A DNA stretch of 64,000 nucleotides from contig NZ_AYPQ01000002.1 of the NCBI RefSeq assembly GCF_000633635.1, forward strand, positions 27,808 through 91,807, read 5' to 3'. Source of the stretch: Enterococcus crotali. GTDB lineage: Bacteria; Bacillota; Bacilli; Lactobacillales; Enterococcaceae. Of this stretch, positions 1,649 to 61,492 are shown in pieces (position 1 is the first letter of the stretch; every line of letters starts with the position of its first letter). The notes below the pieces were generated by a model. The model worked only from the letters and a program-made list of their open reading frames with translations. It was not told the DNA's origin and ran no database searches. The position numbers were made by a program, and so were the translations under genes.

Positions 1649-2101
1649 ATGGAGTTGGGAAGGTTATATTCTGATGCGTATCGCAGAGGAATCTTGTTGG
1701 GGGTGTTCTTTTTATTTCCAGTAGCACTGTGTTTTGGATTGATTATTTTTGCTGATGTCGATCGACTAGGCATGCAGATGGGGTTGATTGGAGGCGCTTT
1801 TTTTGCAGTATTATCGGCTTTTCAATTTGTCTTTAGAAAAGATGGGTTGTATTTGTATGAGAACGGCTTGGAGCTGGTTCATTTTAATCGAAAGAAAGTC
1901 CTGATGTAAGAAGATATCCGCTATTTTACGATCACTAGCAACTGGAATCTAGCAGGGATCAGTACAAGTTTTATCTCATTTAGAAAATCACCGCATATCA
2001 TCATTCGATTAAAGAATGAAAAAATGATCAAATTATTTTTTGAAGCTAATCAGTTTGCAGCAAGCGAATTGGGGAATAAAGTGACGTATGTAAAATCGTA
2101 G
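1649..2101 (+). pseudogene. Small membrane protein gene with in-frame TAA
   Basis: The start at 1649 has the SD AAAGGAG just upstream. The first 86 residues hold two hydrophobic segments (LLGVFFLFPVALCFGLIIF and MGLIGGAFFAVLSAFQFVF). The frame stops at TAA 1907-1909, but the same frame then stays open to TAG 2099-2101 and reads as ordinary protein (EDIRYFTITSNWNLAG...). So the natural product was about 150 residues: two membrane helices followed by a cytosolic PH-like tail. I do not recognise the family beyond a general resemblance to small DUF-type membrane proteins. Either a nonsense mutation or a base-call error is possible. Confidence 0.6.
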
Positions 2102-2115
2102 AAAACGAAAAGTAA

Positions 2116-2437: not shown

Positions 2438-3296
2438 ATGGATGTTGGTAGCATAATTGAGTTGATCAGGCAAAAGAAAAATATACCGATTAAGTCTTTG
2501 ATCGGAGGAGTTGTGTCACGAGCACATTATTATCGAATCACAAATGGTCAGTCAGATATGACGGTAACGTGTTTCTTTAAAATCTTAGAGCAGTTGAATG
2601 TTTCTTTGGATGAATTCTTATTTATACAAAATAACTTTAAAATAGAGAGATTTAAAGCATTGTTTACGGATGTTCGTCAGAGTTTTATTGAGCAAGATGT
2701 AGAAAAACTATTGTCTTTAAAAGAAAAATCAACCCTAATTTACAAGAAGACAAATTTGGAACGTTACCAACATATTGCGCTAGTCGTTAAATTATTAATC
2801 AATCGATTAAAAAATGAAGAATATGATTCCTTTGCTAAAGAGTATTTACAAGAATATTTAGTGAATTTAAATATGTTCACCCATTATGATTTAGTTCTCT
2901 ATACAAATACTTTTTCGCATATTCAAAGGAACTAAACGAAGCGATTAGTATAAGGATTTTAGAGAATGCGAAAAAGTATGAACAATTGAAATCATTTGAA
3001 TCTGATACTGTCAAAGTGCTATCTAACATGATTTTTTACGAAATTGAGATGAATGATTTTAAAAAAGTAAAAGAATATCTTGGCTATATGAAACAGGTAG
3101 AATTGAGTGAACATTTGATTATTGAGAAGATTCTAAAAAAGTTCTTTATGGGAATTGATTGTATTTTGGCAGAAAATGTTAAGCAAGGAAAAAACAAATG
3201 AAGGAAAGCATAACATTATTGAAGTTATTGGAAGATAACCACTCCTTTTTTTTAGAAAAAATAGAGGAGCATTTGTTTAGCTATTTTAACTTGTAG
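2438..3296 (+). pseudogene. Rgg/GadR/MutR-type transcriptional regulator, two frameshifts
   Basis: ATG 2438 follows the SD AAAGGGG. The N-terminal 60 residues form an Xre-like helix-turn-helix (GSIIELIRQKKNIPIKSL...SRAHYYRITNGQ). The rest is the alpha-helical, TPR-like domain typical of Rgg regulators, which bind small peptides and often control bacteriocin genes. The frame breaks at a T5 run (2911-2915) and again at an A6 run (3189-3194). Adding one base at each restores a continuous product of about 286 residues (...FFAYSKELNEAISIRILENAKKYEQ... to EEHLFSYFNL). Both breaks are in homopolymers, so sequencing error is as likely as decay. Its position directly upstream of a small cationic peptide and ABC genes suggests it controls them. 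Confidence 0.72.
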
Positions 3297-3319
3297 ACAG
3301 AAATCAAATTTGTTTTTTT

Positions 3320-3335
3320 GTCTCAAATAAGAGAC
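3320..3335. promoter_or_regulatory. Inverted repeat before the peptide gene
   Basis: GTCTC-6-GAGAC lies about 105 bp before the peptide start, in the AT-rich gap after the regulator. T-runs lie on its upstream side, so it does not look like a terminator for the + strand. It may be a regulator-binding site. A possible -10 TATACT lies at about 3362. Confidence 0.35.
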
Positions 3336-3441
3336 CTTTAGACGTGAATTTACATAAAAATACTATACTAAGCCTTGTAAGTTTTAATCATCTAAATACT
3401 ATTTGTTAAGTATTTATTGGTGGAAAGGTGGAGTTGTTTTT

Positions 3442-3537
3442 ATGTGGACTTGGATTTGGGCGATTATTCGTTGGATTTTGAAGAAAGCAATTTGGACGGC
3501 CATTTGGGGCTGGCTTAAAAAATGGTTGGGTTGGTAG
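3442..3537 (+). CDS. Trp-rich cationic peptide, candidate leaderless bacteriocin
   Basis: An ORF of 31 codons with a strong SD (AAAGGTGGAG) 8-9 nt before ATG 3442. Tryptophans are at residues 2, 4, 6, 11, 18, 22, 24, 28 and 31; basic residues are Arg10, Lys14, Lys15, Lys26 and Lys27. There are no acidic residues and no Cys. There is no leader, double-Gly or signal sequence. The pattern suits an amphipathic membrane-active helix. Length and lack of leader resemble leaderless bacteriocins of the aureocin A70 / garvicin KS size class and the Trp-rich aureocin A53 / lacticin Q type, but I see no alignable homology to any I know. It lies between an Rgg-type regulator and two ABC systems, as in bacteriocin/immunity loci. 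Function is inference; the alternative is a membrane-active signalling or toxin peptide. Confidence 0.68.
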   Translation: MWTWIWAIIRWILKKAIWTAIWGWLKKWLGW

Positions 3538-3582
3538 ACTTTACTTTTTATAAATAAACCAACAAAATTTTGAGGAGTAAGG

Positions 3583-3633
3583 ATGAGAAAGAGTTTAATG
3601 AAAATGAAGAAAAAGTGTTGTTGGATAAATTAA
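3583..3633 (+). CDS. Very small ORF after the peptide gene (16 aa)
   Basis: ATG 3583 has a good SD (GAGGAG, 3572-3577) and encodes MRKSLMKMKKKCCWIN. It is basic with two Cys. The downstream DNA in another frame reads ENEEKVLLDKLT and then, after a stop, ANMDETYIFF. So a slightly longer gene broken by indels is possible, given how common single-base losses are in this window. I cannot decide between a real 16-residue peptide and a damaged gene of about 30 codons. Confidence 0.35.
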   Translation: MRKSLMKMKKKCCWIN

Positions 3634-3749
3634 CTTAGCAAATATGGATGAAACTTATATCTTTTTCTGATTTTACACACATAAACTTTTTCTATCCTTT
3701 CTATTTTTTGTAAAAGTCTTAAAAAAATAAAAGAAAGGAACGTGGCTTA

Positions 3750-4335
3750 ATGAGAGTTGAAAACATTACATACTACATGACTGCACAAAAAAGAATTGAA
3801 CACTTTACATATGATATGGCTTCACATTCACTGACTTTGATTGTTGGCAAAAATGGGACAGGGAAGTCAACTCTGTTAAAACTAATGGCAGGGATTTTAA
3901 CGCCGGATAGTGGACAAATCATCCAGACTGAGAGGACTTCTTACGTTCCAGATTCTTCTGAAAATTATTTTAAAGGCGTTACACCATTGTTTTATTTTAA
4001 TTTTTTAAGATCAGAATTTCGAATTGAAAAAGATTTTTTCAATAGTCGATTAATAGAACTCATGGAAATTTTTAATTTCTCTGAAAGGCTTATGACAAGT
4101 GAAATGGGCTCTTTATCTTTAGGTGAGAAGAAAAAAGTGATGTTGATCGGCGCTTTTTTAAATGACTCAAAACTTTATTTAATGGACGAGCCAACTTCTG
4201 GATTAGATCAAGAATCTTTGGGTAATTTTTTGCAGATAAAAAAAAAAAGAACGGCAAAAAAATAAAAAATTTATCATCATTAGTCATGAACATGCTGAAC
4301 TTTTTAAGCAAGTGGATGAGATGATTCAGTTGTAA
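3750..4335 (+). CDS. ABC transporter ATPase, frameshift near the C-terminus
   Basis: This is a short ABC-type ATPase of about 195 residues when repaired. Walker A GKNGTGKST is at residues 33-41. The signature is LSLGEKKKV and Walker B is LYLMDEPTSGLD. The frame runs into a stop at 4263-4265 after an A11 run (4238-4248). Removing one A restores the switch His (FIIISHEHAELFKQVDEMIQL) and a stop at 4333-4335. The permease follows 22 bp downstream, so they form one transporter. In bacteriocin loci such pairs give export or self-immunity. The break is in the longest homopolymer of the area and is probably an artefact. Confidence 0.75.
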
Positions 4336-4357
4336 AAAAAGGGGAAGGAGTAGCTTT

Positions 4358-5613
4358 ATGATGGAACTAAAAGAAAACCGCTTTTTTTTAGAGCTATTAA
4401 CTGTATTTTTTATACGAAAAGGAATATGGGCAAAAGAAAAAACACTGAAGCTTAGTAATTTGCTACAAATGACCTATACATATTTTTTAAGTTCTCTCTT
4501 GATATTTTTAGGAATGCTCTTATTTAAACAGGAGATTACAATAGTTTTAAAAGCATCATCGTTGTTTGCGTCGCTTCGTTATTATGATGTACTTGTCGTT
4601 AGTTTGGCAGTGATTCTTTTGATGGGCATTAGCTATGAGAATTATTTCTTTATCAAAACACACACTCATCAAACACTATCTATTTTTTTTAGGATGAATA
4701 CTAAAAAATTATTTTTATTAATGCGATAAAAACGATGATCATTGTTTTACCGATAATTATTTTTTTGAGTTTTTACTATACTTTTTGGCCTTTGCTATAT
4801 GCTTTAGTCATTTATAGTTTTAGTTATTTTGTACTCATTGTTTATGGTTTTAATCAGCAAAGAAGTCGATTGAAAAACCATAAAAGGATTGCAGAAAATT
4901 GGCTTGTTAACAGTATATTAGTGAAGTTTGTGTATGTCTTCAGATTATTCACATTGTCGTATTTCTTTAAAGCCTTATTTTTACCTATTGTGTCTATTCT
5001 TCTATTCGCAATTTTATTAAGCTATGATTTTAATATTGTGCAAATCTCTGGTGGCACAGAAGCTTTTTTTGTTAGCTTTTTTCTAAGTGCCATTATTTTT
5101 AATGATAAAGGTCTCATTTATGGTTTTTTGGCATTAATGACAGATATTCCTTATCTGAAAGGGTTTCAATATGATAGTAAATTTTTTTTAATACGTAGTT
5201 CGTTAGCACTATTTTTTATTCAAGCAATTCCAGCACTTCTATTGTTCATATGGACTATCAAACACTGGCTGACCGATAATTGGAGTTGGTTATTTATGGC
5301 CGGACTAGGATTATTAACTGGAAGTATTCTGTTAACACTGATTCACGCTGGGAAAGGTTTAAAACTAAACGGGAAGTTTGACCATTCTAGTCAGCTAGAA
5401 GGATATACAGCTTCACTTAAAGATAGTGTGTTTTATTTTATACAAACGTTACCATTATTAGTTAGTATGGTTCTTTTCAAAGTAGTAGGTAAGATTACTT
5501 GGGGAGAAAATGCCTTTTTGATTCTCTTTCTAATCGCTCTGATAATCTATGGTAACTATCTTATTAAGCAACTTCAACTTATCTATTCAATAACTTTGGG
5601 GGAAAAAAAATGA
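4358..5613 (+). pseudogene. ABC transporter permease, one frameshift
   Basis: Two ORFs, 4358-4729 and 4735-5613, are one gene. At a T5 run (4712-4716) one missing T separates NTKKLF from FINAIKTMIIVLPIIIF. Repaired, it is about 418 residues with some ten hydrophobic helices and no recognisable soluble domain, as in ABC-2 type or bacteriocin-immunity permeases. The ATPase gene ends 22 bp upstream, and the stop overlaps the start of the next ABC gene (ATGA at 5610). I recognise it only as a membrane permease by context. Confidence 0.65.
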
Positions 5614-7604
5614 GTATTTTAACATTAAAAAGTATTAAAAAATCCTATTCGATCAACGAAAAAGAAGAAGAACAAGTATTAGATGGAATCGATTTGGATG
5701 TTCAAGATGGTGAGTTTTTAGCACTACTTGGACCATCGGGGTGTGGAAAATCCACTTTGCTTAACATTATTAGTGGATTAGATACTGATTATGAAGGGGA
5801 TGTTCTGTATAAAGGGACTTCGCTAAAGTTTTTAAATGACCATGAGTTGACGGACTTTCGTAAAAATAATATTGGTTTTGTATTTCAAAACTTTAATTTG
5901 ATTTCGCATATGAGTGTTCTGGAAAATACCATGATCCCAATGTATTTAAACGGGAACACTCATTCAGAAAATAAGAAAAAGGCATTAGAACTTTTGGATT
6001 CCGTTGGTTTAAAGAAGTATGCGGATAAAAATGTGAAAAATCTATCTGGAGGTCAAAAACAACGGGTAGCGATTGCTCGTGCTCTTACAAATGAGCCAGA
6101 ATTGATTATTGCAGATGAACCAACAGGATCACTAGACTCAAAATCACAAAACCGCATATTAGAAATTTTAGAAGGTTTGACTCAACAAGGAAAAACAGTG
6201 ATTGTAGTAACACACAATGAAGAAATTACAGAGCGTGTGGATACGGTTGTTAAATTAAGAGATGGGCAAATTGTGGAAGTGGAACAAAAAAAAGATCGAG
6301 ATTTCGTTGAACCGAACATATCTAAAGAAGGAAAGAAGAACAGATTTAACGTTATTAGCATGTTAAAAATTGCCTTTTCTAATTTTATGCAACGAAAATG
6401 GCGGAATATCATGATTTCTTTTGCAACATCAATTGGGTTAACAGGTATTTTGCTTTCATTAGGGTTAGGCAATGGGATTGTGAAAATTATCGAACAAGAC
6501 ATGGATGGTGGGAAAATTCCGTCTCAAATTCAAATTTCTTTAAACAGTCAACAAAGCAGTGGAATCATTAACGAAAATGATCTGAACTATATCAAAAATA
6601 AAGTAGGGCAAGAAAAAATCAAATATTTTGAGGCACCTTTTGGTATGAGAATGATTGAAGTTGAAGTAGAAGGTGAAGGGAAAGCAGATTACAGGGATAC
6701 AACACCAAACTATTCCCAAGTTGTTAGTTTATACGATAATATATCGATCAAAGTTCCTTCTAATACAAAAGACTCTATTTTGGCTGGGAAGGAATATAAA
6801 AATCCTAAAGAAGAAGGCATTACTTTAACTGAAAGCTTTATTAAAGATTTTAATAAATTGAACAAAAAGAATCTTACCGCGGATAGTGTCATCGGTAAAA
6901 AATTAAAAGGGATGATTGTTGAAAGTACAAGCGAAGGTGAAAAGACTGGAGTCTTTTCAACAAAGATCGTTCGAATCGTTAAAGATGAAACAGAAGAAGA
7001 AAACTCCTACATGGCACCTGTTGAGATGGAACGAATTGTTACACAAAATAAATTTGAAAAAAATATTCCTTATTTCATTCTGGAATTAAAGGAACCTTCA
7101 GAAAATAAACAAGTGATGGACCAAATCAATAGCAATAAAAAGTATGTAGCGATCTCTCAGACGGCGGTTGTCGATATCATTATCAATTTTATTAAGATCA
7201 TTCAAGGGCTTTTGATTTTCATGTCAACACAAGCAGTTGTTGTTTCAGTCGTAATGATCGGAATTGTCATGTATATCAATGTTATCGAACGAACGAGAGA
7301 AATTGGTGTAATGAAAGCGATTGGGTATCGAAATCGTGATATCAACATGATTTTCACCTCGGAATCGGCATTTATTACTTTACTATCGCTATTATTAGCC
7401 TTACTATTTGCCTCATTCATCGGATTTGGAATCAATGAAATTGTAGCGATGAAGGCCAAAGCGATTTCTAGTGTTTTTATGTTAGATATCGTGGCAATTG
7501 GCGGAACGGTTATTTTGGCTATTGTGATGTCTTTATTTTCAGCAAGTGTTCCAATGATGAAAGTTGGAAAATTAGATCCAGCGACATCATTGAGGTATGA
7601 ATAG
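5610..7604 (+). CDS. MacB-like ABC transporter, fused ATPase and FtsX-type permease (664 aa)
   Basis: Residues 1-225 are a LolD/MacB-type ATPase: Walker [10 protein letters not shown] (41-49), LSGGQKQR, Walker B LIIADEPTGSLD, and a switch His in VVTHNEE. A basic linker follows. Residues from about 250 form an FtsX-like permease: one helix (ISFATSIGLTGILLSLGLG), a large extracytoplasmic domain (about 290-515) and three C-terminal helices. This layout belongs to the antimicrobial-peptide export/resistance group. The start overlaps the upstream permease stop by 4 bp, and a membrane-anchored gene follows 2 bp later, so all are co-transcribed. Probable role: export of, or immunity to, the Trp-rich peptide (inference). 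Confidence 0.85.
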   Translation: MSILTLKSIKKSYSINEKEEEQVLDGIDLDVQDGEFLALLGPSGCGKSTLLNIISGLDTDYEGDVLYKGTSLKFLNDHELTDFRKNNIGFVFQNFNLISHMSVLENTMIPMYLNGNTHSENKKKALELLDSVGLKKYADKNVKNLSGGQKQRVAIARALTNEPELIIADEPTGSLDSKSQNRILEILEGLTQQGKTVIVVTHNEEITERVDTVVKLRDGQIVEVEQKKDRDFVEPNISKEGKKNRFNVISMLKIAFSNFMQRKWRNIMISFATSIGLTGILLSLGLGNGIVKIIEQDMDGGKIPSQIQISLNSQQSSGIINENDLNYIKNKVGQEKIKYFEAPFGMRMIEVEVEGEGKADYRDTTPNYSQVVSLYDNISIKVPSNTKDSILAGKEYKNPKEEGITLTESFIKDFNKLNKKNLTADSVIGKKLKGMIVESTSEGEKTGVFSTKIVRIVKDETEEENSYMAPVEMERIVTQNKFEKNIPYFILELKEPSENKQVMDQINSNKKYVAISQTAVVDIIINFIKIIQGLLIFMSTQAVVVSVVMIGIVMYINVIERTREIGVMKAIGYRNRDINMIFTSESAFITLLSLLLALLFASFIGFGINEIVAMKAKAISSVFMLDIVAIGGTVILAIVMSLFSASVPMMKVGKLDPATSLRYE

Positions 7605-7606
7605 AG

Positions 7607-8296
7607 ATGAAAAAATTTAACAAGAGAATTAGGATTTTTTTAGTAGTCGTCGTCTTGGTTTTTTCTTGTTTTCTATACCTTATGATGATTGATACTTCTA
7701 AAAGTAAGAAAAAAGAGGTAGGTGATACGTTGGAAGATCAGTTTTTAAAAGAAGTGATTTATCTAGAAAAAAGTACGAGTAATCAGGATCATGAGCTTGA
7801 TCTGAGTTCAATGAATTTAATGATACTAAATGAAATCATTTTGGATGTGAAACAAACGGTTGCTCATGATACTGGATTAAGTCAAAATGATTTGGATAAG
7901 CTATTTCAAAAGTTTCATCAGAAACTTAAAGAAAAAACATATTATGATTCAGAGTTGATAACAGAGCGAAAGAAAATGAAAGAATACAAAATTCAAGTTT
8001 ATGGAATTGATTTAACAGGATTTTTGAAACAACTAAAACAAGAAATACAACAATTAAAAGAAATGAAAACAGAAGAAAAAGCAAGTTTCTTGAATCAACT
8101 ATTTTCTCGCCAAATTGCAACAATTTCGGTAAAAAAAGAGCCAGTTATATTAAGCCTAAAGTTCAAAAAAAGAAACGACAAATGGCAAATTGATTCAAGT
8201 CAATTTGATGTCCTAAATATATATTTAGGTTTTTATACTGGAGAAAGTAATTTGCTCGCTTTAAAAGGAATGATGAACAGTTTGGATTTTAAATAA
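7607..8296 (+). CDS. Membrane-anchored protein of the ABC operon, function unknown
   Basis: 229 residues. It starts 2 bp after the MacB-like gene. A basic N-terminus (MKKFNKRIR) and one hydrophobic helix (IFLVVVVLVFSCFLYLMM) anchor a Lys/Glu-rich, mostly helical outer domain. The Cys in the helix (FSCFLYL) is not a good lipobox. By position it could be the extracytoplasmic adaptor or immunity factor of the transporter, as in three-part MacB-like systems. I recognise no family. Confidence 0.6.
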   Translation: MKKFNKRIRIFLVVVVLVFSCFLYLMMIDTSKSKKKEVGDTLEDQFLKEVIYLEKSTSNQDHELDLSSMNLMILNEIILDVKQTVAHDTGLSQNDLDKLFQKFHQKLKEKTYYDSELITERKKMKEYKIQVYGIDLTGFLKQLKQEIQQLKEMKTEEKASFLNQLFSRQIATISVKKEPVILSLKFKKRNDKWQIDSSQFDVLNIYLGFYTGESNLLALKGMMNSLDFK

Positions 8297-8329
8297 TTAT
8301 TTCAGAATTAGTTAGATACAATGCTTTGG

Positions 8330-8372
8330 AAACAGATTTAGCACTTAATTAAAGTGATAAATCTGTTTTTTG
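8330..8372 (+). terminator. Rho-independent terminator of the ABC operon
   Basis: AACAGATTTA / TAAATCTGTT arms around CACTTAATTAAAGTG, which also pairs; T-run at the end. Confidence 0.85.
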
Positions 8373-8532: not shown

Positions 8533-8847
8533 ATGTCAGGAATCAAAAGCAGTGTGACCGTTGCAGGCGGTATCTCAGCACAGTTCAGTCAAGCAGCAAG
8601 CGGTTTTTCATCTGTGAATGAGGTGGTGAGCAAGGCAGAACGCACGACGGTTAGTGGCAATAGTAACGCAAAAAATAGCTTAGCGAGCATTCATAGTCGT
8701 GGTCAGCGCGTGTCCAATGCGATCGCTCGTGACGGGAATAATATTTATTCGGTCGCAAAAGAATTCAGCGAAATCGATCAAAAAATCAAAAGAAGTTTCG
8801 ACTTACCACTGTTTTCTCCAAATCTTGGAGGTGGCAGTCGTTCATGA
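8533..8847 (+). CDS. Small type VII secretion protein, SACOL2603/TIGR04197-like
   Basis: 104 residues with an SD-like AAAGGGGTTTGGG before ATG 8533. The sequence is Ser/Ala-rich and helical (VTVAGGISAQFSQAASGFSSVNEVVSKAER), the length and style of the TIGR04197 type VII effector/partner family. Such proteins usually precede an LXG toxin gene and are thought to pair with its LXG domain for export. The stop overlaps the next start (ATGA), so translation is coupled. Family assignment is from memory of the motif pattern. Confidence 0.7.
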   Translation: MSGIKSSVTVAGGISAQFSQAASGFSSVNEVVSKAERTTVSGNSNAKNSLASIHSRGQRVSNAIARDGNNIYSVAKEFSEIDQKIKRSFDLPLFSPNLGGGSRS

Positions 8848-9218
8848 GTGAAGAGAGAGAATTAAAAATCAATCAACAGTTAAGGCAAGTAAGTATTGAT
8901 CAAGAGGATAAACGGCGTGAAATTCGAGAGTTAGAGGATTTGGAAGCGGATTATTTTTCGATCCATCAACAGGAACAACGCTATTATCAAGACTTGATCG
9001 GCAATAATCAAGGTTCACGTTATACAGGTCATTTTATGGAGTTGGATGACGAGGCCAACCGCTTACACCAATATGAACGCCAACGTCTAGAAGACATAGC
9101 TGAACGTTTAGTAAATGAGGAAGTACAGTTGAGAGACAAAGAAGAGGAATTATACGCTGAGAGAAGCCTGCTGTTTGCCGAAGGAGACGAAGCGGAGGAC
9201 AAGCGCTATGGGTATTGA
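8844..9218 (+). CDS. DUF3958-like coiled-coil partner of the LXG protein
   Basis: 124 residues, highly charged, predicted coiled coil almost throughout (RQVSIDQEDKRREIRELEDL and QYERQRLEDIAERLVNEEVQ). It lies between the TIGR04197-like gene and the LXG gene and overlaps both. DUF3958 proteins occupy this position in Firmicute LXG operons and are likely export adaptors. It has no membrane segment. Confidence 0.7.
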   Translation: MSEERELKINQQLRQVSIDQEDKRREIRELEDLEADYFSIHQQEQRYYQDLIGNNQGSRYTGHFMELDDEANRLHQYERQRLEDIAERLVNEEVQLRDKEEELYAERSLLFAEGDEAEDKRYGY

Positions 9219-10545
9219 TTTTTATGTAGGTGAAGTAAAATCTCAAAGTGCCGCCGCTAAACAAATGGCAAATGAATATATTCAATTTTGCGGGACATTG
9301 AAAGATAGCGTCAATGCTTTTATGAGTGCACCACTTTCCAGCAAAACTTACGATTCAGCAAAACTTTATTTTTCAGCAGTCTATCCATCTTTGGCTAGTG
9401 GGTTTATACTAGCATGTGAGGCTTTAATTGAAGCCCATAGTAAATTCCCAGAAGAATTTCAATCATCTGTAGATACATGCGATGTGATCGAAGAACAATT
9501 AAAAGCAGAAATTGCTCAAGGACAAGCCTTACTGCAAAATATGGCACGCACGATGGATAAAGAAAAAGAACCCAATCAACGTATGGAACAGCGCTATATG
9601 GGCGTACAAAGCTCGATTCAAAAGAATGAAGAAAAGCTACAGCAATTATACGAGTTTAATGCAAGCTCACCGAATTTATTTGCGGATTTTGAAGCACAAT
9701 TGGCTAATTTAGATGCAGGATTAGCGGAGGTCGAAAAAGGTGCGGCATGGAATCCAGCTTCTGGAACGTTTGAGTTGTCGAGGATGAATTTAGCATGGAC
9801 GAAACCGATTGGGAAGGCTTGGTCCAAGAGAGAATTAGGTAAATCTTTTAGAAATAGAAAAATCGGCTCGCCAAAATCTGAAAATGATAATTCGTTTGAT
9901 ATCAATGAATTAGAAAAATCGTTGTTTAGCTTCTTTTCTCCTATAATTTCTCCATTCCTAGGCTTTCAATACAATATGGATAAAGATTATTACTATACAA
10001 ATAAGCATTCTATTCAAAGTATGGGCGGATTCATGGATTTATTTGATGAATTTGGTCCGTATCTAGGAATGGATCTCGATACAGAAGTGATTCTTTTTAA
10101 TGTGAATGGTAAAGAGTATCGTTTACAATTATGGAAAGGGACTTATGGGTTTGGGGAAGCATATGGAGCAGAAATTGGTTTATATTATAAAAATCCAGAA
10201 TCAAGTGATCTAATTACCCAAATTCAAACGGCAATTCCAGATTGGTATGCTTGTGTGGCAGAAGCTGATCAATTGAAAATGAAACAAACAGTTTATGATG
10301 TTAATACTAAAGAACAGTTACTTACCAATGATACAAGGGATTATGCAGAATACGGTAAGCATTTTTGGAATTTAGTAATCAAAACAGATAGTGGAATTAA
10401 CAAAGAAGCTTTAATGACACATTCTGAGATAGAGGTGCCCGATATTAATATGCGAAAAGCAATGCTTGAAGCTTTGAGAAAAGAAAATGATATAAGGAAT
10501 GTCAGAGAAAAAGGGGATGTAATAGAATTCACATGGAAAAATTAA
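9208..10545 (+). CDS. LXG-domain type VII effector with DUF4474-like C-terminus
   Basis: The start is ATG 9208, with SD GGAGG at 9195-9199; the frame is open further 5' but without a better start. It gives 445 residues. Residues 1-200 fit an LXG domain (MGIDFYVGEVKSQSAAAKQM, long helices). The C-terminal 170 residues contain VNGKEYRLQLWKGTYG and GAEIGLYYKNPES, the hallmark of DUF4474 domains seen at the ends of LXG proteins. LXG proteins are antibacterial toxins exported by the type VIIb system; the biochemical activity of DUF4474 is unknown to me. The small partners overlap upstream and a lipoprotein overlaps downstream. Confidence 0.8.
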   Translation: MGIDFYVGEVKSQSAAAKQMANEYIQFCGTLKDSVNAFMSAPLSSKTYDSAKLYFSAVYPSLASGFILACEALIEAHSKFPEEFQSSVDTCDVIEEQLKAEIAQGQALLQNMARTMDKEKEPNQRMEQRYMGVQSSIQKNEEKLQQLYEFNASSPNLFADFEAQLANLDAGLAEVEKGAAWNPASGTFELSRMNLAWTKPIGKAWSKRELGKSFRNRKIGSPKSENDNSFDINELEKSLFSFFSPIISPFLGFQYNMDKDYYYTNKHSIQSMGGFMDLFDEFGPYLGMDLDTEVILFNVNGKEYRLQLWKGTYGFGEAYGAEIGLYYKNPESSDLITQIQTAIPDWYACVAEADQLKMKQTVYDVNTKEQLLTNDTRDYAEYGKHFWNLVIKTDSGINKEALMTHSEIEVPDINMRKAMLEALRKENDIRNVREKGDVIEFTWKN

Positions 10546-26679: not shown

Positions 26680-27332
26680 ATGAGTGTAAGTGATTTTATG
26701 ACAAAAAATCTAGTGGTTGCACAACCGGAAATGAAGATTTTTGACGCCGTTGATTTGATGAAAAAAATAATATCCACCGTTTACCAGTAGTCAAAGGAGA
26801 AAAACTTATAGGCTTGATCACGGAAGGGACGATTCAATCGGCAATGCCGTCAAAAGCAACCAGTTTGAGTGTCTATGAAGTGAATTATTTACTAAACAAG
26901 ACGACTGTAGTGGATATAATGGTAAAAGAAGTTCAAACAATCAAACCAACTGCTTCATTAGAGGACGGTATTTTCCAAATGCGCCAAAATAATATTGGGG
27001 TATTACCAGTTGTTGATGAAAATGAAACTTTAATTGGAATTATAACAAATAATGATATTTTTGACGCTTTCTTAAAAATCACTGGGTATAATGCTGGTGG
27101 TACGAGAATTCAACTTCGAATCCCAGAAGATCATAAAGGAATTTTAGCTACTATTACAAAATTATTAGCAGAAAATGATTTTAGTATTTTAACAGTAGTT
27201 GTAAATCGCAAAGAACTAGAAACAATTATTGAACTGCAAATCGAAAGTAGGGAAACGCATCAAATTGAAAGTATTTTAAAAGATGCTGGATATGATGTTT
27301 TTGAGGCAATATTCATGCCTCAGCAAATCTAA
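26680..27332 (+). pseudogene. CBS-ACT domain protein (AcuB-like), frameshifted
   Basis: ATG 26680 begins a CBS domain (MSVSDFMTKNLVVAQPEMKI). An A7 run at 26761-26767 lacks one A; adding it gives LMKKNNIHRLPVVKGEKLIG and a continuous product of 217 residues. A second CBS motif (VVDIMVKEVQTIKPTASLED) and a C-terminal ACT-like region (RIQLRIPEDHKGILATITKL) follow. It is the last gene of the liv operon; ACT domains bind amino acids, so it may sense branched-chain amino acids or nucleotides and tune uptake (inference). Confidence 0.8.
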
Positions 27333-40426: not shown

Positions 40427-41753
40427 ATGCAAGAATTATGGGGAAGAAAAGTTTTAAAAAAAGAGATCGACAATGACAAAATCATTGAAGTTTCTAGCCA
40501 AAATATGCCAACAATGGAGGAGTTAAATGATAAGGAAATCCAGTGTTTACGATGCGGTCAAATTCAAAGGAAAGTGACTGTCCGATTGAGTAATGGAAAT
40601 TATTTTTGTCCAGAGTGTATTCAACTAGGCAGAGTAGATACTAGCAAGAATTTTATCATTTACCAGAGCCGGAGTCGATAAAAAAGACAGTTCATTTTGC
40701 CTGGGAAGGAAAGCTTACTGATGGACAACAAGCTGTATCAGATGAGCTATTAGCTTCTGTAAAAAAAGGGGAATCTAGAATGATTTGGGCGGTGACAGGC
40801 GCAGGAAAGACAGAGATGCTATTTAAAACGATTCATTATTCTTTGGAATGTGGCTATCGCGTTGGGGTGGCCTCACCTAGAGTAGATGTTTGTTTAGAGC
40901 TTTTTCCTAGAATCCAAGCCGTGTTTCCAGATGAACCAGCTATCTTGCTTCATGGAAAGATGGACGAAAGATATTATTATACTAAATTACTAGTATGTAC
41001 TACGCATCAATTATTACGTTTTTTTCAAGCTTTCGATGTATTGATTATTGATGAAGTGGACGCTTTTCCTTTTGTGAACAATCCATTACTGCAATATGCT
41101 GTAAAACAATCAAGCAAAAACAAGAGCTCACTCATCTATTTAACTGCAACTCCGACAGATGCATCAACTAAAAGAAATGATCAAACGAACTTGAAAATCA
41201 GCATCTTACCTGCCCGTTATCATCGGAGAGCACTACCCGTTCCTAAAATAAAATGGTGTCGTCACTGGCATGAAAAAATCAAAAAAGGTCGCAGTCCAAA
41301 GCAACTTGTGACTAAAATCCGTATGTTGATGAATAAAAATGATGTATTGATTTTCTGTCCAAGCATTTCTTTGATGGAACAATTAAAGAACGCTATAGAA
41401 AAGGAATTTCCAGAAGTACCACTAGCTTGCGTTCATTCACAAGATTCAGAGCGATTGGAAAAAGTGCTGGGAATGAGAAATAAAAAATATAGAATTTTAA
41501 TAACATCTACTATTTTGGAACGAGGGGTGACTTTTGATGGTGTTTCGGTGATTGTTTTAGGAGCAAATCATTCTGTTTTTGCAACGTCAGCTCTTGTTCA
41601 AATTGCTGGTAGAGTCGATCGAAGAATGAACTACACTGCAGGTGAGGTTTGGTTTTTACATGATGGCTGTACGAAAGCATGAAAGAGGCAATCAGACAAA
41701 TCAAAAGGATGAATAGGCTAGGAGTGGAGAGGGGCTTGATTGATGAAATGTAA
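40427..41753 (+). pseudogene. comFA: Competence DNA helicase ComFA, two frameshifts
   Basis: ATG 40427 follows AAGGGGGGAA. The N-terminal zinc finger has CLRCGQIQRK and YFCPECIQLG. A missing T in the T4 run at 40651-40654 breaks the frame; repaired it reads KNFYHLPEPESIKKT. Helicase motifs follow: Walker A TGAGKTEM, DEAD-like IIDEVDAFPF, and motif VI QIAGRVDRR. A second single-base loss at about 41679 cuts the last 25 residues (repaired end MKEAIRQIKRMNRLGVERGL... to TAA 41753, overlapping comFC). ComFA drives single-stranded DNA through the ComEC channel during transformation. With all motifs intact, artefact is likely. Confidence 0.85.
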
Positions 41754-53692: not shown

Positions 53693-54493
53693 ATGAAAGA
53701 ATATAATTTAAATGATACCAATATTATTAAATTACCAGAGCCAATCGCTTTACATACCGATGATCTACATGTTTGGTATGGAGACAATGAAGCAATCAAA
53801 GGTGTTGATTTAGAATTTGAAAAAAATAAAATCACGGCCTTGATCGGTCCTTCTGGTTGTGGTAAATCGACGTATTTACGTTCATTGAACCGTATGAATG
53901 ATGGAATCGCCAACACCAAAGTGACTGGAAATATCATGTATAAAGGTGTGAACGTCAATACCAAAGAAGTTGATGTTTATGAAATGCGTAAACGAATCGG
54001 CATGGTATTTCAGCGCCCGAATCCGTTTAGTAAATCAATCTATGAAAACATTACCTTCGCCTTAAAACAACATGGTGAAAAAGACAAGAAAAAACTCGAT
54101 GAAATTGTTGAAACGAGCTTAAAACAAGCTGCACTTTGGGATCAAGTTAAAGATAATCTAGGTAAAAGTGCGTTAGCTTTATCAGGTGGGCAGCAACAGC
54201 GCCTATGTATTGCTAGAGCTATCGCTATGAAGCCGGATATTCTTTTGTTGGATGAGCCGGCAAGTGCGTTAGATCCGATCTCAACAGGGAAAGTCGAAGA
54301 AACATTAGTCAATTTGAAAGATGATTATACAATCATTATTGTTACACATAATATGCAACAAGCTGCCCGTATCAGTGATTACACTGCCTTTTTCTACTTA
54401 GGAAAAGTAATTGAGTACGATGAAACAAGAAAAATCTTTACACGACCAAAAATTCAAGCGACAGAAGATTATGTTTCTGGACATTTTGGTTAG
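53693..54493 (+). CDS. pstB: Phosphate ABC transporter ATPase PstB (first copy)
   Basis: 266 residues. Walker [10 protein letters not shown] followed by [25 protein letters not shown], Walker [13 protein letters not shown]. The N-terminal extension ([20 protein letters not shown]) is longer than in the second copy. Two adjacent PstB paralogues are normal in Lactobacillales. Confidence 0.93.
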
Positions 54494-54503
54494 GAGGAGA
54501 AAG

Positions 54504-55262
54504 ATGACAAAAGAGATTATTTCATCAAAAGATTTGCATTTATATTATGGTAAAAAAGAAGCCTTAAAAGGTATCGATCTAAGTATCAACCAAGGAGAGA
54601 TCACTGCAATGATCGGTCCTTCTGGTTGTGGTAAATCAACTTATCTACGTTCGCTGAATCGAATGAATGATTTGATTCCGGGTGTGACGATCACAGGAAG
54701 TGTAGTTTACAAAGGCAAAGATATCTATGGGCCAAAAACAGATATCGTAGATTTACGTAAAGAAATCGGTATGGTATTTCAACAGCCCAACCCGTTTCCT
54801 TTTTCTATTTATGAAAATGTAATCTATGGGTTGCGTTTAAAAGGTGAAAAGGACAAACAAGTGCTGGACCAAGCTGTGGAAAATAGTTTAAAAGCAGCTT
54901 CTGTTTGGGAAGACGTGAAAGATAAACTGCATAAAAGCGCCTTATCTTTATCAGGTGGACAACAACAACGTGTTTGTATTGCTCGCGTTTTAGCTGTTGA
55001 TCCTGAAATTATTTTATTAGATGAACCAACGAGTGCGCTAGATCCTGTTTCAAGTGGTAAAATCGAAAATATGCTTTTAACACTGAAAGAAAAATATACA
55101 ATGATTATGGTGACGCATAATATGTCTCAAGCCTCACGAATTTCTGATAAAACTGCTTTCTTTTTACAAGGAGAATTGATAGAATTTAACGATACGAAAA
55201 AAATATTCTTGAATCCCAAAGAAAAACAAACAGAAGATTATATTTCTGGAAAATTTGGATAA
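54504..55262 (+). CDS. pstB: Phosphate ABC transporter ATPase PstB (second copy)
   Basis: ATG 54504 after SD AGGAGGAG; 252 residues. Same motifs as the first copy ([37 protein letters not shown]). The two differ enough to be an old duplication. Confidence 0.93.
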
Positions 55263-60191: not shown

Positions 60192-61492
60192 ATGAGAATG
60201 GTCGATATCATTGAAAAAAAACGAAATGGTCATGAACTGAGTAAAGAAGAAATCGAATTTTTTGTTGAAGGTTTAACAAATGGAACAATTCCGGATTATC
60301 AGGCAAGTGCCTTTTTAATGGCGGTCTACTTTCAAGACATGTCAGATGCAGAACGAGCGGATTTAACATTGGCTATGGTTCATTCAGGTGATGTAATTGA
60401 TTTATCGAATATAGAAGGTGTCAAAGTCGATAAACACTCAACAGGCGGTGTTGGTGATACGACGACATTAGTTTTAGCACCATTAGTTGCAGCGTTGGAT
60501 ATTCCATTTGCAAAAATGTCAGGGCGTGGTTTAGGACATACAGGCGGCACCATTGATAAATTGGAAGCTTCGAAGGGTTTCATGTAGAATTGACGGATGA
60601 TGAATTTACTGAAATGGTCAATCGCGATAAAATTTCAGTGATCGGTCAATCAGGTAATCTCACACCAGCAGATAAAAAACTTTATGCTTTACGAGACGTT
60701 ACAGCAACAGTTAGCTCAATCCCTTTGATTGCAAGTTCAATCATGAGTAAAAAAATTGCAGCAGGTGCAGATGCCATTGTTTTAGATGTTAAGACAGGTG
60801 CGGGTGCATTCATGAAAACCGAGGAGGAGGCAGTAGAACTAGCGTCTGCAATGGTTAGAATCGGTAATTTAGTTGGTAGAAATACTATGGCGATCATTTC
60901 TGATATGTCACAACCTTTAGGAAATGCAATTGGGAACTCATTAGAAGTGCAAGAAGCAATCGATACCTTACAAGGAAATGGCCCAGAAGATTTAACTGAA
61001 TTGGTCTTGACGCTAGGTAGTCAGATGGTTGTTCTTTCTGGTAAGACGGATTCATTAGCAAAAGCTAGAGAGCTGTTAACAGGCGTGATCAAAGATGGTT
61101 CAGCGTTAGTCAAATTCAAACAATTTATCAAAAACCAAGGGGGCAATCCTAACTGGGTCGATGAGCCTAAACGATTGCCACAAGCTAACTTTGAAATTGA
61201 AGTTACTTCTGATTCGGATGGTTTTGTTTCAGAAATCGTCGCAGATAATATCGGTGTAGCGGCAATGAAACTTGGCGCTGGTCGTGAAACAAAAGAAGAT
61301 GATATTGACCTAGCCGTTGGGTTGATTTTAAGAAAAAAAGTTGGTGATCCAGTGAAAAAAGGTGACAGCTTAGTAACGATTTTTGCTAATCAACAAGAGG
61401 TTGCTGACGTTGTAGCGATGATCAAGGAGAATATCCGTATAGGATCAGATGTTCAAGAAAGTAAATTGATTTATCGTGAGATCCACAATTAG
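60192..61492 (+). pseudogene. pdp: Pyrimidine-nucleoside phosphorylase, frameshifted
   Basis: ATG 60192 (SD GAGGT), [21 protein letters not shown] base is missing at about 60581; restoring it gives [19 protein letters not shown] and a 433-residue enzyme to 61492. Motifs: [38 protein letters not shown] and [13 protein letters not shown] (phosphate and thymidine sites). It converts thymidine/uridine/deoxyuridine to base and sugar-1-P. A truncated half-enzyme would be useless, so error is likely. Confidence 0.9.

What the first reader, a model, noticed from the sequence alone, without database searches (positions are those of the whole stretch)
2438..8296. Candidate new leaderless-bacteriocin locus: Trp-rich cationic peptide with Rgg-type regulator and two ABC systems
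Seen: a 31-codon ORF at 3442 with a strong SD, nine Trp, five basic and no acidic residues, no leader. It is preceded by an Rgg/MutR-type regulator and followed by an ATPase-permease pair, a MacB-like ATPase-permease fusion and a membrane-anchored protein, then a terminator. Known: leaderless bacteriocins start with fMet, are short, basic and Trp-containing, and sit beside ABC immunity/export genes; Rgg regulators control several bacteriocins. Inference: this is one such system, with an unusual Trp content (29%) unlike any family I recall. Gene prediction would miss the peptide because of its size.
Basis: partly seen in the sequence, partly recalled or inferred. Interest (0 to 1): 0.88.

Follow-up and report, generated by a model that had tools for sequence, protein, structure and literature searches.

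The report
New tryptophan-rich leaderless bacteriocin family
A tiny tryptophan-packed peptide gene beside its own pumps in an Enterococcus belongs to a so far undescribed-looking family of probable antibacterial peptides that also occurs, in one to three copies and next to quorum-sensing switches, in several Streptococcus genomes.

Summary
The ORF at 3442-3537 (31 aa, 9 Trp, 5 basic, 0 acidic) is real and far outside chance. E. ureilyticus has a 27-aa version in the same gene order. In 9 of 284 Streptococcus-genus genomes (8 found independently, one used in the profile) 1-3 tandem copies, 19 genes in all, lie directly before the same ABC genes. All 11 peptide genomes hold the permease; 11 of 14 permease genomes hold the peptide. 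Eight of the nine streptococcal loci carry a ComR-like regulator and ComR-box, six of them also a short ORF ending WWK, WWT or WWW. Best reading: a new family of small, often multi-peptide leaderless bacteriocins under Rgg/ComR quorum sensing, with ABC export and/or immunity. No Pfam, NCBIfam, PHROG or PDB match was found and six peptide fragments occur in no held paper. Killing, export and immunity are inferred. In this assembly the Rgg, first ATPase and permease genes are split by indels (assembly error or decay). Whole-helix amphipathicity is not above shuffles; the two halves face roughly opposite sides.

The parts
2438..3296 (+). Rgg-type transcriptional regulator; split over three frames by single-base indels in this assembly
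   Evidence: intact orthologue L043:2853-3713, Pfam Rgg_C 2e-19
3320..3335 (+). inverted repeat GTCTC-N6-GAGAC, candidate Rgg operator, conserved in E. ureilyticus
   Evidence: function inferred
3364..3369 (+). -10-like TATACT, conserved in E. ureilyticus; the -35-like sequence is not
   Evidence: promoter inferred, not listed by the scan
3424..3433 (+). Shine-Dalgarno-like AAAGGTGGAG before the peptide
3442..3537 (+). 31-aa Trp-rich cationic leaderless peptide
3583..3633 (+). second conserved mini-ORF MRKSLMKMKKKCCWIN with GAGGAG SD, the SD lying inside a predicted hairpin; role unknown
3750..4335 (+). ABC ATPase, split by an indel in a long A-run; 86% identical to E. ureilyticus, whose copy is 44-53% identical to the streptococcal ones
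4358..5613 (+). large ABC permease (418 aa in E. ureilyticus), split over two frames here; no Pfam family
5610..7604 (+). MacB-like ATPase-FtsX permease fusion, intact, 92% identical to E. ureilyticus; two separate overlapping genes in the streptococcal loci
7607..8296 (+). membrane-anchored DUF5105 protein, candidate immunity protein; also in E. ureilyticus, no match in the nine streptococcal loci
8328..8370 (+). terminator-like hairpin with T-run
   Evidence: z -4.7; E. ureilyticus counterpart z -6.8

Best explanation
The locus encodes a small leaderless bacteriocin (27-31 aa, starting Met-Trp, motif roughly MWxxVWxIIxWI...AIWGWVKxW) with its own regulator and transport/immunity genes. Proposed mechanism: an Rgg-family receptor (Rgg in Enterococcus; a ComR-like protein with a double-Trp pheromone in Streptococcus) activates a promoter through an inverted-repeat operator at high cell density; the peptide, or 2-3 sibling peptides, is translated without a leader and inserts into target membranes through its Trp and Lys/Arg residues; the ATPase-permease pair and the MacB-like system export it and/or clear it from the producer's membrane, helped in Enterococcus by the DUF5105 protein. 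Shown here: conservation, tandem copies, gene order, regulator family, ComR-boxes, WW-ended ORFs. Inferred: killing, export, immunity, and Rgg control in Enterococcus.
For: The E. ureilyticus orthologue differs by an in-frame 12-nt deletion and keeps the motif. 9 of 284 Streptococcus-genus genomes match profile A1 at E 3.4e-17 to 1.3e-8; G298 was itself in A1, the other 8 were not. They hold 19 peptide genes in 1-3 tandem copies, 11-18 nt apart where in tandem, each with an SD-like sequence (weakest before the second copy of G590), directly before ATPase, permease and MacB-type genes. Peptide genomes with the permease: 11 of 11. The regulator tested (one, G608) is ComR family (Pfam ComR_TPR 1.5e-66; PDB ComR 5fd4 1.2e-53). 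GACA-N4-TGTC box in 8 of 8 loci with a full-length regulator and before the G298 peptide; WW-type short ORF found in 6 of 8. Hairpin between peptide and ATPase strong in 2 of 5 loci folded (G298 z -6.1, G590 z -4.5), as expected if more peptide than transporter is made. Net charge +2 to +5 in the 10 peptides computed.
Against: No activity or expression data. The whole-peptide hydrophobic moment at 100 degrees is not above shuffles in any of the 10 peptides computed (401 to 1877 of 2000 shuffles reach it). Per half, in the 8 of these 10 computed, the C-half is reached by 28 of 2000 shuffles in the window peptide and 45-241 in the other seven, the N-half by 150-555, and the halves point 121-178 degrees apart, so a single amphipathic helix does not fit. 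Rough codon counts show more non-synonymous than synonymous changed codons in 7 of 9 pairs (one tie, one the other way), so selection on the exact sequence is at most moderate. G210 keeps the ABC genes without the peptide. No WW-type ORF was found in 2 of 8 loci. The hairpin is weak in the window (z 0.2), E. ureilyticus (z -1.8) and G608 (z -2.3). The window copy has split regulator, ATPase and permease genes.
Confidence: 0.74

Rival explanations
1. The peptide is a pheromone precursor for the neighbouring Rgg regulator (RtgS-like, with a Trp-Gly-Trp motif, or a long relative of the leaderless communication peptides), exported by the ABC genes.
For: It lies next to an Rgg gene and no other signal ORF was recognised in the two enterococcal loci; most members have WGW; pneumococcal RtgS has a Trp-Gly-Trp near its C-terminus (PMC7018657, passages); LCPs are leaderless and some begin MW (PMC13361665, passages).
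Against: In 6 of 8 streptococcal loci with a full-length regulator a separate short ORF of WW type sits after the ComR-box where comS is expected; peptides occur as 2-3 diverged siblings in 7 of 9 streptococcal loci; conservation runs over the whole length; most LCPs are 8-10 aa (PMC10518010, passages).
Confidence: 0.12
2. A secreted membrane-active peptide with another role (surfactant, biofilm or host-cell effect, like phenol-soluble modulins) rather than a bacteriocin.
For: Short, fMet-starting amphiphilic peptides in small tandem sets with a dedicated ABC exporter also describe that class (recalled, no call).
Against: ComR and its paralogues control bacteriocins and competence in S. salivarius (PMC6703854 and PMC12445099, passages); the peptides are cationic and Trp-rich. 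No test here excludes it.
Confidence: 0.08
3. A regulatory leader ORF (for example Trp attenuation) or a type I toxin rather than a secreted product.
For: Trp-rich short ORF, followed in 2 of 5 loci folded by a strong hairpin before the ABC genes; a second mini-ORF with a sequestered SD in the two enterococci.
Against: Residue pattern and charge are kept beyond the Trp positions across two bacterial families; 2-3 copies, each with its own SD-like sequence, in 7 of 9 streptococcal loci. Antisense RNA genes were not looked for.
Confidence: 0.04

Closest known systems
Multi-peptide leaderless bacteriocins (aureocin A70, garvicin KS, cereucins)
   Same: 26-34 aa, no leader, sibling genes in one cluster, cationic (PMC6131525, passages with part of its table 2)
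   Different: Described sets have 3-4 peptides; here 1-3, with 13-30% Trp and an MW start. Regulators named in that review are LnqR (for lacticin Q) and AurR with sigma-B (for A70). No direct alignment with these peptides was run.
Aureocin A53-like leaderless bacteriocins (lacticin Q, BHT-B, lactolisterin BU)
   Same: leaderless, highly cationic and Trp-rich (PMC6131525, passages)
   Different: Those are longer (about 43-53 aa, recalled); profile A3 finds no PDB chain at E up to 10
LsbB / enterocin K1 / enterocin EJ97
   Same: short leaderless single peptides (about 30-44 aa, recalled) of lactococci and enterococci
   Different: [quoted passage not shown] here both ends are conserved and Trp-rich
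ComRS, its paralogues ScuR/SarF, and RtgR/S
   Same: ComR-type regulator, GACA-N4-TGTC box, small Trp-containing pheromone, control of competence or bacteriocins (passages)
   Different: RtgR/S drives double-glycine peptides; no leaderless bacteriocin is mentioned in the ScuR/SarF paper (0 occurrences of 'leaderless'). The one search joining ComR, leaderless bacteriocin and quorum sensing listed one general review, which I did not open

Membership tests
leaderless bacteriocin | short peptide translated without leader or signal peptide, own SD | tested here: met
   27-31 aa from ATG to stop in 21 genes of 11 genomes; SD-like sequence before each ATG, weakest in G590 copy 2. An in-frame upstream TTG exists in the window only as far as compared
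leaderless bacteriocin | cationic, amphiphilic, membrane-active peptide | tested here: inconclusive
   charge +2 to +5 in 10 peptides; whole-helix moment not above shuffles, halves on opposite faces in 8
leaderless bacteriocin | cluster with ABC export/immunity genes | tested here: met
   ATPase, permease and MacB-type genes beside the peptide in 11 of 11 peptide genomes; permease frame split in G000 and G529 and enlarged in G530
leaderless bacteriocin | antimicrobial activity of the unmodified peptide | not testable with these tools
   bench assay needed
aureocin A53-like family | sequence or profile similarity | tested here: not met
   0 Pfam families for 18 of 18 peptides at E up to 1; 0 PDB chains at E up to 10. 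Whether the libraries hold an A53 model was not checked
multi-peptide group (aureocin A70, garvicin KS) | 3-4 sibling peptides of about 30 aa | tested here: inconclusive
   three peptides in 3, two in 4, one in 2 of 9 streptococcal genomes; one in each of 2 enterococci
multi-peptide group (aureocin A70, garvicin KS) | sequence homology to its members | not tested
   member sequences were not fetched; only library models were scanned
ComRS-controlled operon (streptococcal loci) | ComR_TPR regulator, GACA-N4-TGTC box about 24 nt before a -10, small WW-type ORF | tested here: met
   box 8 of 8, WW-type ORF 6 of 8 loci with a full-length regulator; ComR family tested on one protein; regulation itself untested
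double-glycine bacteriocin with peptidase-containing exporter | GG leader; C39 peptidase domain in the ABC protein | tested here: not met

The most novel reading that the evidence does not exclude
A previously undescribed family of miniature Trp-rich leaderless bacteriocins, spread over two families of one bacterial order, in which diverged sibling peptides act together and are fired by a ComR-type quorum-sensing circuit: the first leaderless bacteriocins wired to a ComRS-like switch, with a dual ABC immunity/export module. Two helical segments with opposite faces would mean a membrane insertion mode different from a single amphipathic helix.
Probability: 0.6. Interest if true: 0.75.

Novelty: new variant of a known kind. 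Interest (0 to 1): 0.64.

Why it matters
It turns one odd 31-codon ORF into a testable peptide family with 17 distinct natural sequences in the 11 genomes found, short enough for direct synthesis and easily passed over by annotation. It also offers a clean system for open questions about leaderless bacteriocins: how they are regulated, exported and tolerated by the producer. The WW-type pheromone ORFs beside them make the regulation directly testable.

Tried and rejected
Weak hits treated as chance after a look: G008 (E 0.014; another frame inside a larger gene of a catabolic cluster), G966 and G934 (E 0.006 and 0.0099; partial, no such ABC neighbours). Set aside without a look: G006, G013, G015 (E 0.45-0.55), G055 (E 0.034), G041, G074, G088 (E 0.03-0.05) and 14 further Streptococcus-genus genomes at E 0.016-0.1.

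No relatives in plasmids or phages by tblastn of one streptococcal peptide, of two permeases in plasmids, or in viral contigs (41 pattern matches, none confirmed). The DNA search of plasmids gave 33 records, none covering more than 7% of the query in the 20 listed. The single genome-contig scan, with the MacB-like protein, gave 6 loci of which only E. ureilyticus was close. No small signal ORF with a convincing SD was recognised between the enterococcal regulator and the peptide. The protein of about 100 aa between regulator and peptides in 8 streptococcal loci has no convincing family match. Structure prediction could not be had.

Paper searches. One search searched six peptide fragments: 0 papers. 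The library lacks most subscription journals and all preprints. Of the papers cited I saw passages or abstracts only, none whole.
Full report
What is there. A 29% Trp content does not arise by chance in this window: 0 of 13,378 ATG ORFs of 25-50 aa in 40 simulated windows reach it (maximum 13%), and the next best of 184 real ORFs has 10%. An in-frame TTG at 3403 could lengthen it to 44 aa, but that extension is not there in E. ureilyticus. The gene order is Rgg regulator, peptide, ABC ATPase, large permease, MacB-like fusion, DUF5105 protein, hairpin terminator.

State of the window copy. The nearest relative found with the locus is Enterococcus ureilyticus LMG 26676 (L043), 84% identical in DNA over 7.6 kb, where the five larger genes and the peptide are open. 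In the window the regulator, the first ATPase and the permease are split by single-base indels at or beside homopolymer runs. Of 52 E. ureilyticus ORFs mapped on the window, 6 were flagged as split: the Rgg, the permease, 26680-27329, 40427-41750, 60192-61489, and 53750-55259, the last of which may be a paralogue match; the ATPase was not flagged but only 84% covered (the 52 include some overlapping antisense frames). The MacB-like gene, 2 kb, is intact. I cannot tell assembly error from early decay.

The peptide is conserved. 2 of 22 genomes of the genus and 2 of 105 of the family have it; 4 and 3 weaker matches were set aside. A permease search of 395 genomes of the order gave 4, and beside one of the two distant permeases (G298) I found a peptide 45% identical to the window's. 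With these three peptides as a profile (A1), 9 of 284 genomes of the G298 genus match at E 1.3e-8 or better; G298 matches by construction, the other 8 are independent. Samples of the class (398; two weak matches rejected) and phylum (264) gave only the window's own genome, which is in the profile. In what was searched the family is confined to Enterococcus and Streptococcus.

Tandem siblings. The nine streptococcal loci hold 19 peptide genes: three in G557, G529 and G533, two in G590, G608, G601 and G584, one in G530 and G298. Tandem copies are 11 or 18 nt apart. All keep M1, W2, W6, W22 and W24 (18 rows, of which two are identical; the three of G529, identical to those of G557, were left out; 17 distinct sequences). 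Over eight rough, non-independent pairs there are 18 synonymous and 28 non-synonymous changed codons, and 3 and 6 between the two enterococci: the pattern is kept while the sequence drifts.

Linkage to the ABC genes. The permease profile (A2, built from E. ureilyticus, G298, G210, G590, G608 and G557) finds 12 of 284 streptococcal genomes and 2 of 105 Enterococcaceae. Peptide and permease occur together in 11 of these 14. The profile leans towards peptide-linked permeases, so the 11 of 14 may be flattering; that 8 genomes found by the peptide alone all have the permease is the cleaner figure. The three without peptide: G210 has the ABC genes and no such ORF before the ATPase; G609 has a split ATPase; G519 has fragments of permease and MacB and another ABC system at the same adhE-GAPDH site. 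Among peptide loci the permease is split in G529 and enlarged in G530.

Regulation. In eight streptococcal loci a 303-306-aa regulator precedes the peptides; the one tested is ComR family. Each of the eight has GACA-N4-TGTC with a -10-like hexamer about 24 nt on, the ComR-box of PMC4072589 and PMC5131891 (passages). In six a short ORF with an SD follows that ends in WWK, WWT or WWW, like ComS double-Trp pheromones; in two (G530, G584) none was found. G298 has only a 68-aa HTH ORF but a ComR-box just ahead of the peptide's -10. In Enterococcus the regulator is another Rgg type (Rgg_C) and a conserved GTCTC-N6-GAGAC repeat lies at 3320-3335; its binding is inferred, and no pheromone ORF was recognised.

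Physics of the peptide. Net charge is +2 to +5 in ten peptides. Their full-length helical moment is ordinary at 100 degrees. In eight of them the N- and C-halves have moments of 0.35-0.53 and 0.38-0.62 with phases 121-178 degrees apart. Against shuffles this stands out only for the C-half, most in the window peptide (28 of 2000).

Comparison. Size, leaderless start, charge, sibling copies and ABC neighbours place it with leaderless bacteriocins, closest in architecture to the multi-peptide group (PMC6131525, passages). No Pfam model matches any of 18 peptides, no NCBIfam model the 2 scanned, no PHROG the 3 scanned, no PDB chain the profile. [quoted passage not shown] By sequence evidence it works like a leaderless bacteriocin and would be a new family of that kind once activity is shown.

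Noticed in passing
window 3538-3680; L043 3936-4078: A second mini-ORF (16 aa, 13 aa in E. ureilyticus; lysine-rich, Cys-Cys) follows the peptide in strongly conserved DNA, with its SD inside a predicted hairpin; it could be a regulatory leader for the ABC genes or a second peptide.
   Followed up: partly
L092-L099, between regulator and first peptide: A conserved protein of 94-103 aa (76 in L095) without convincing family match lies between the ComR-like system and the peptides in eight streptococcal loci.
   Followed up: partly
L118 (G519): The adhE-GAPDH site holds the same kind of regulator and 96-aa ORF, but another ABC system and other genes in place of the peptides, with permease and MacB fragments: it looks like a bacteriocin exchange site.
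   Followed up: partly
window 8533-10545: Directly downstream lies a type VII secretion-linked gene set (TIGR04197 effector family at 8533; the gene at 9175 looks LXG-like by eye, not scanned), whose end differs from E. ureilyticus.
   Followed up: no
window 1649-2102: A small membrane-protein gene appears, by eye, interrupted by an in-frame stop at 1907; only 1633-1765 aligns to the E. ureilyticus locus.
   Followed up: no
window 26680-27329, 40427-41750, 60192-61489: Other genes split by frame changes relative to E. ureilyticus, pointing to scattered indels in this assembly.
   Followed up: partly
L100 reverse strand 10213 and 10557 (G298): Two ComR-boxes near the single peptide gene although only a 68-aa ComR-like HTH ORF is present; the peptide may be under a regulator elsewhere.
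   Followed up: no
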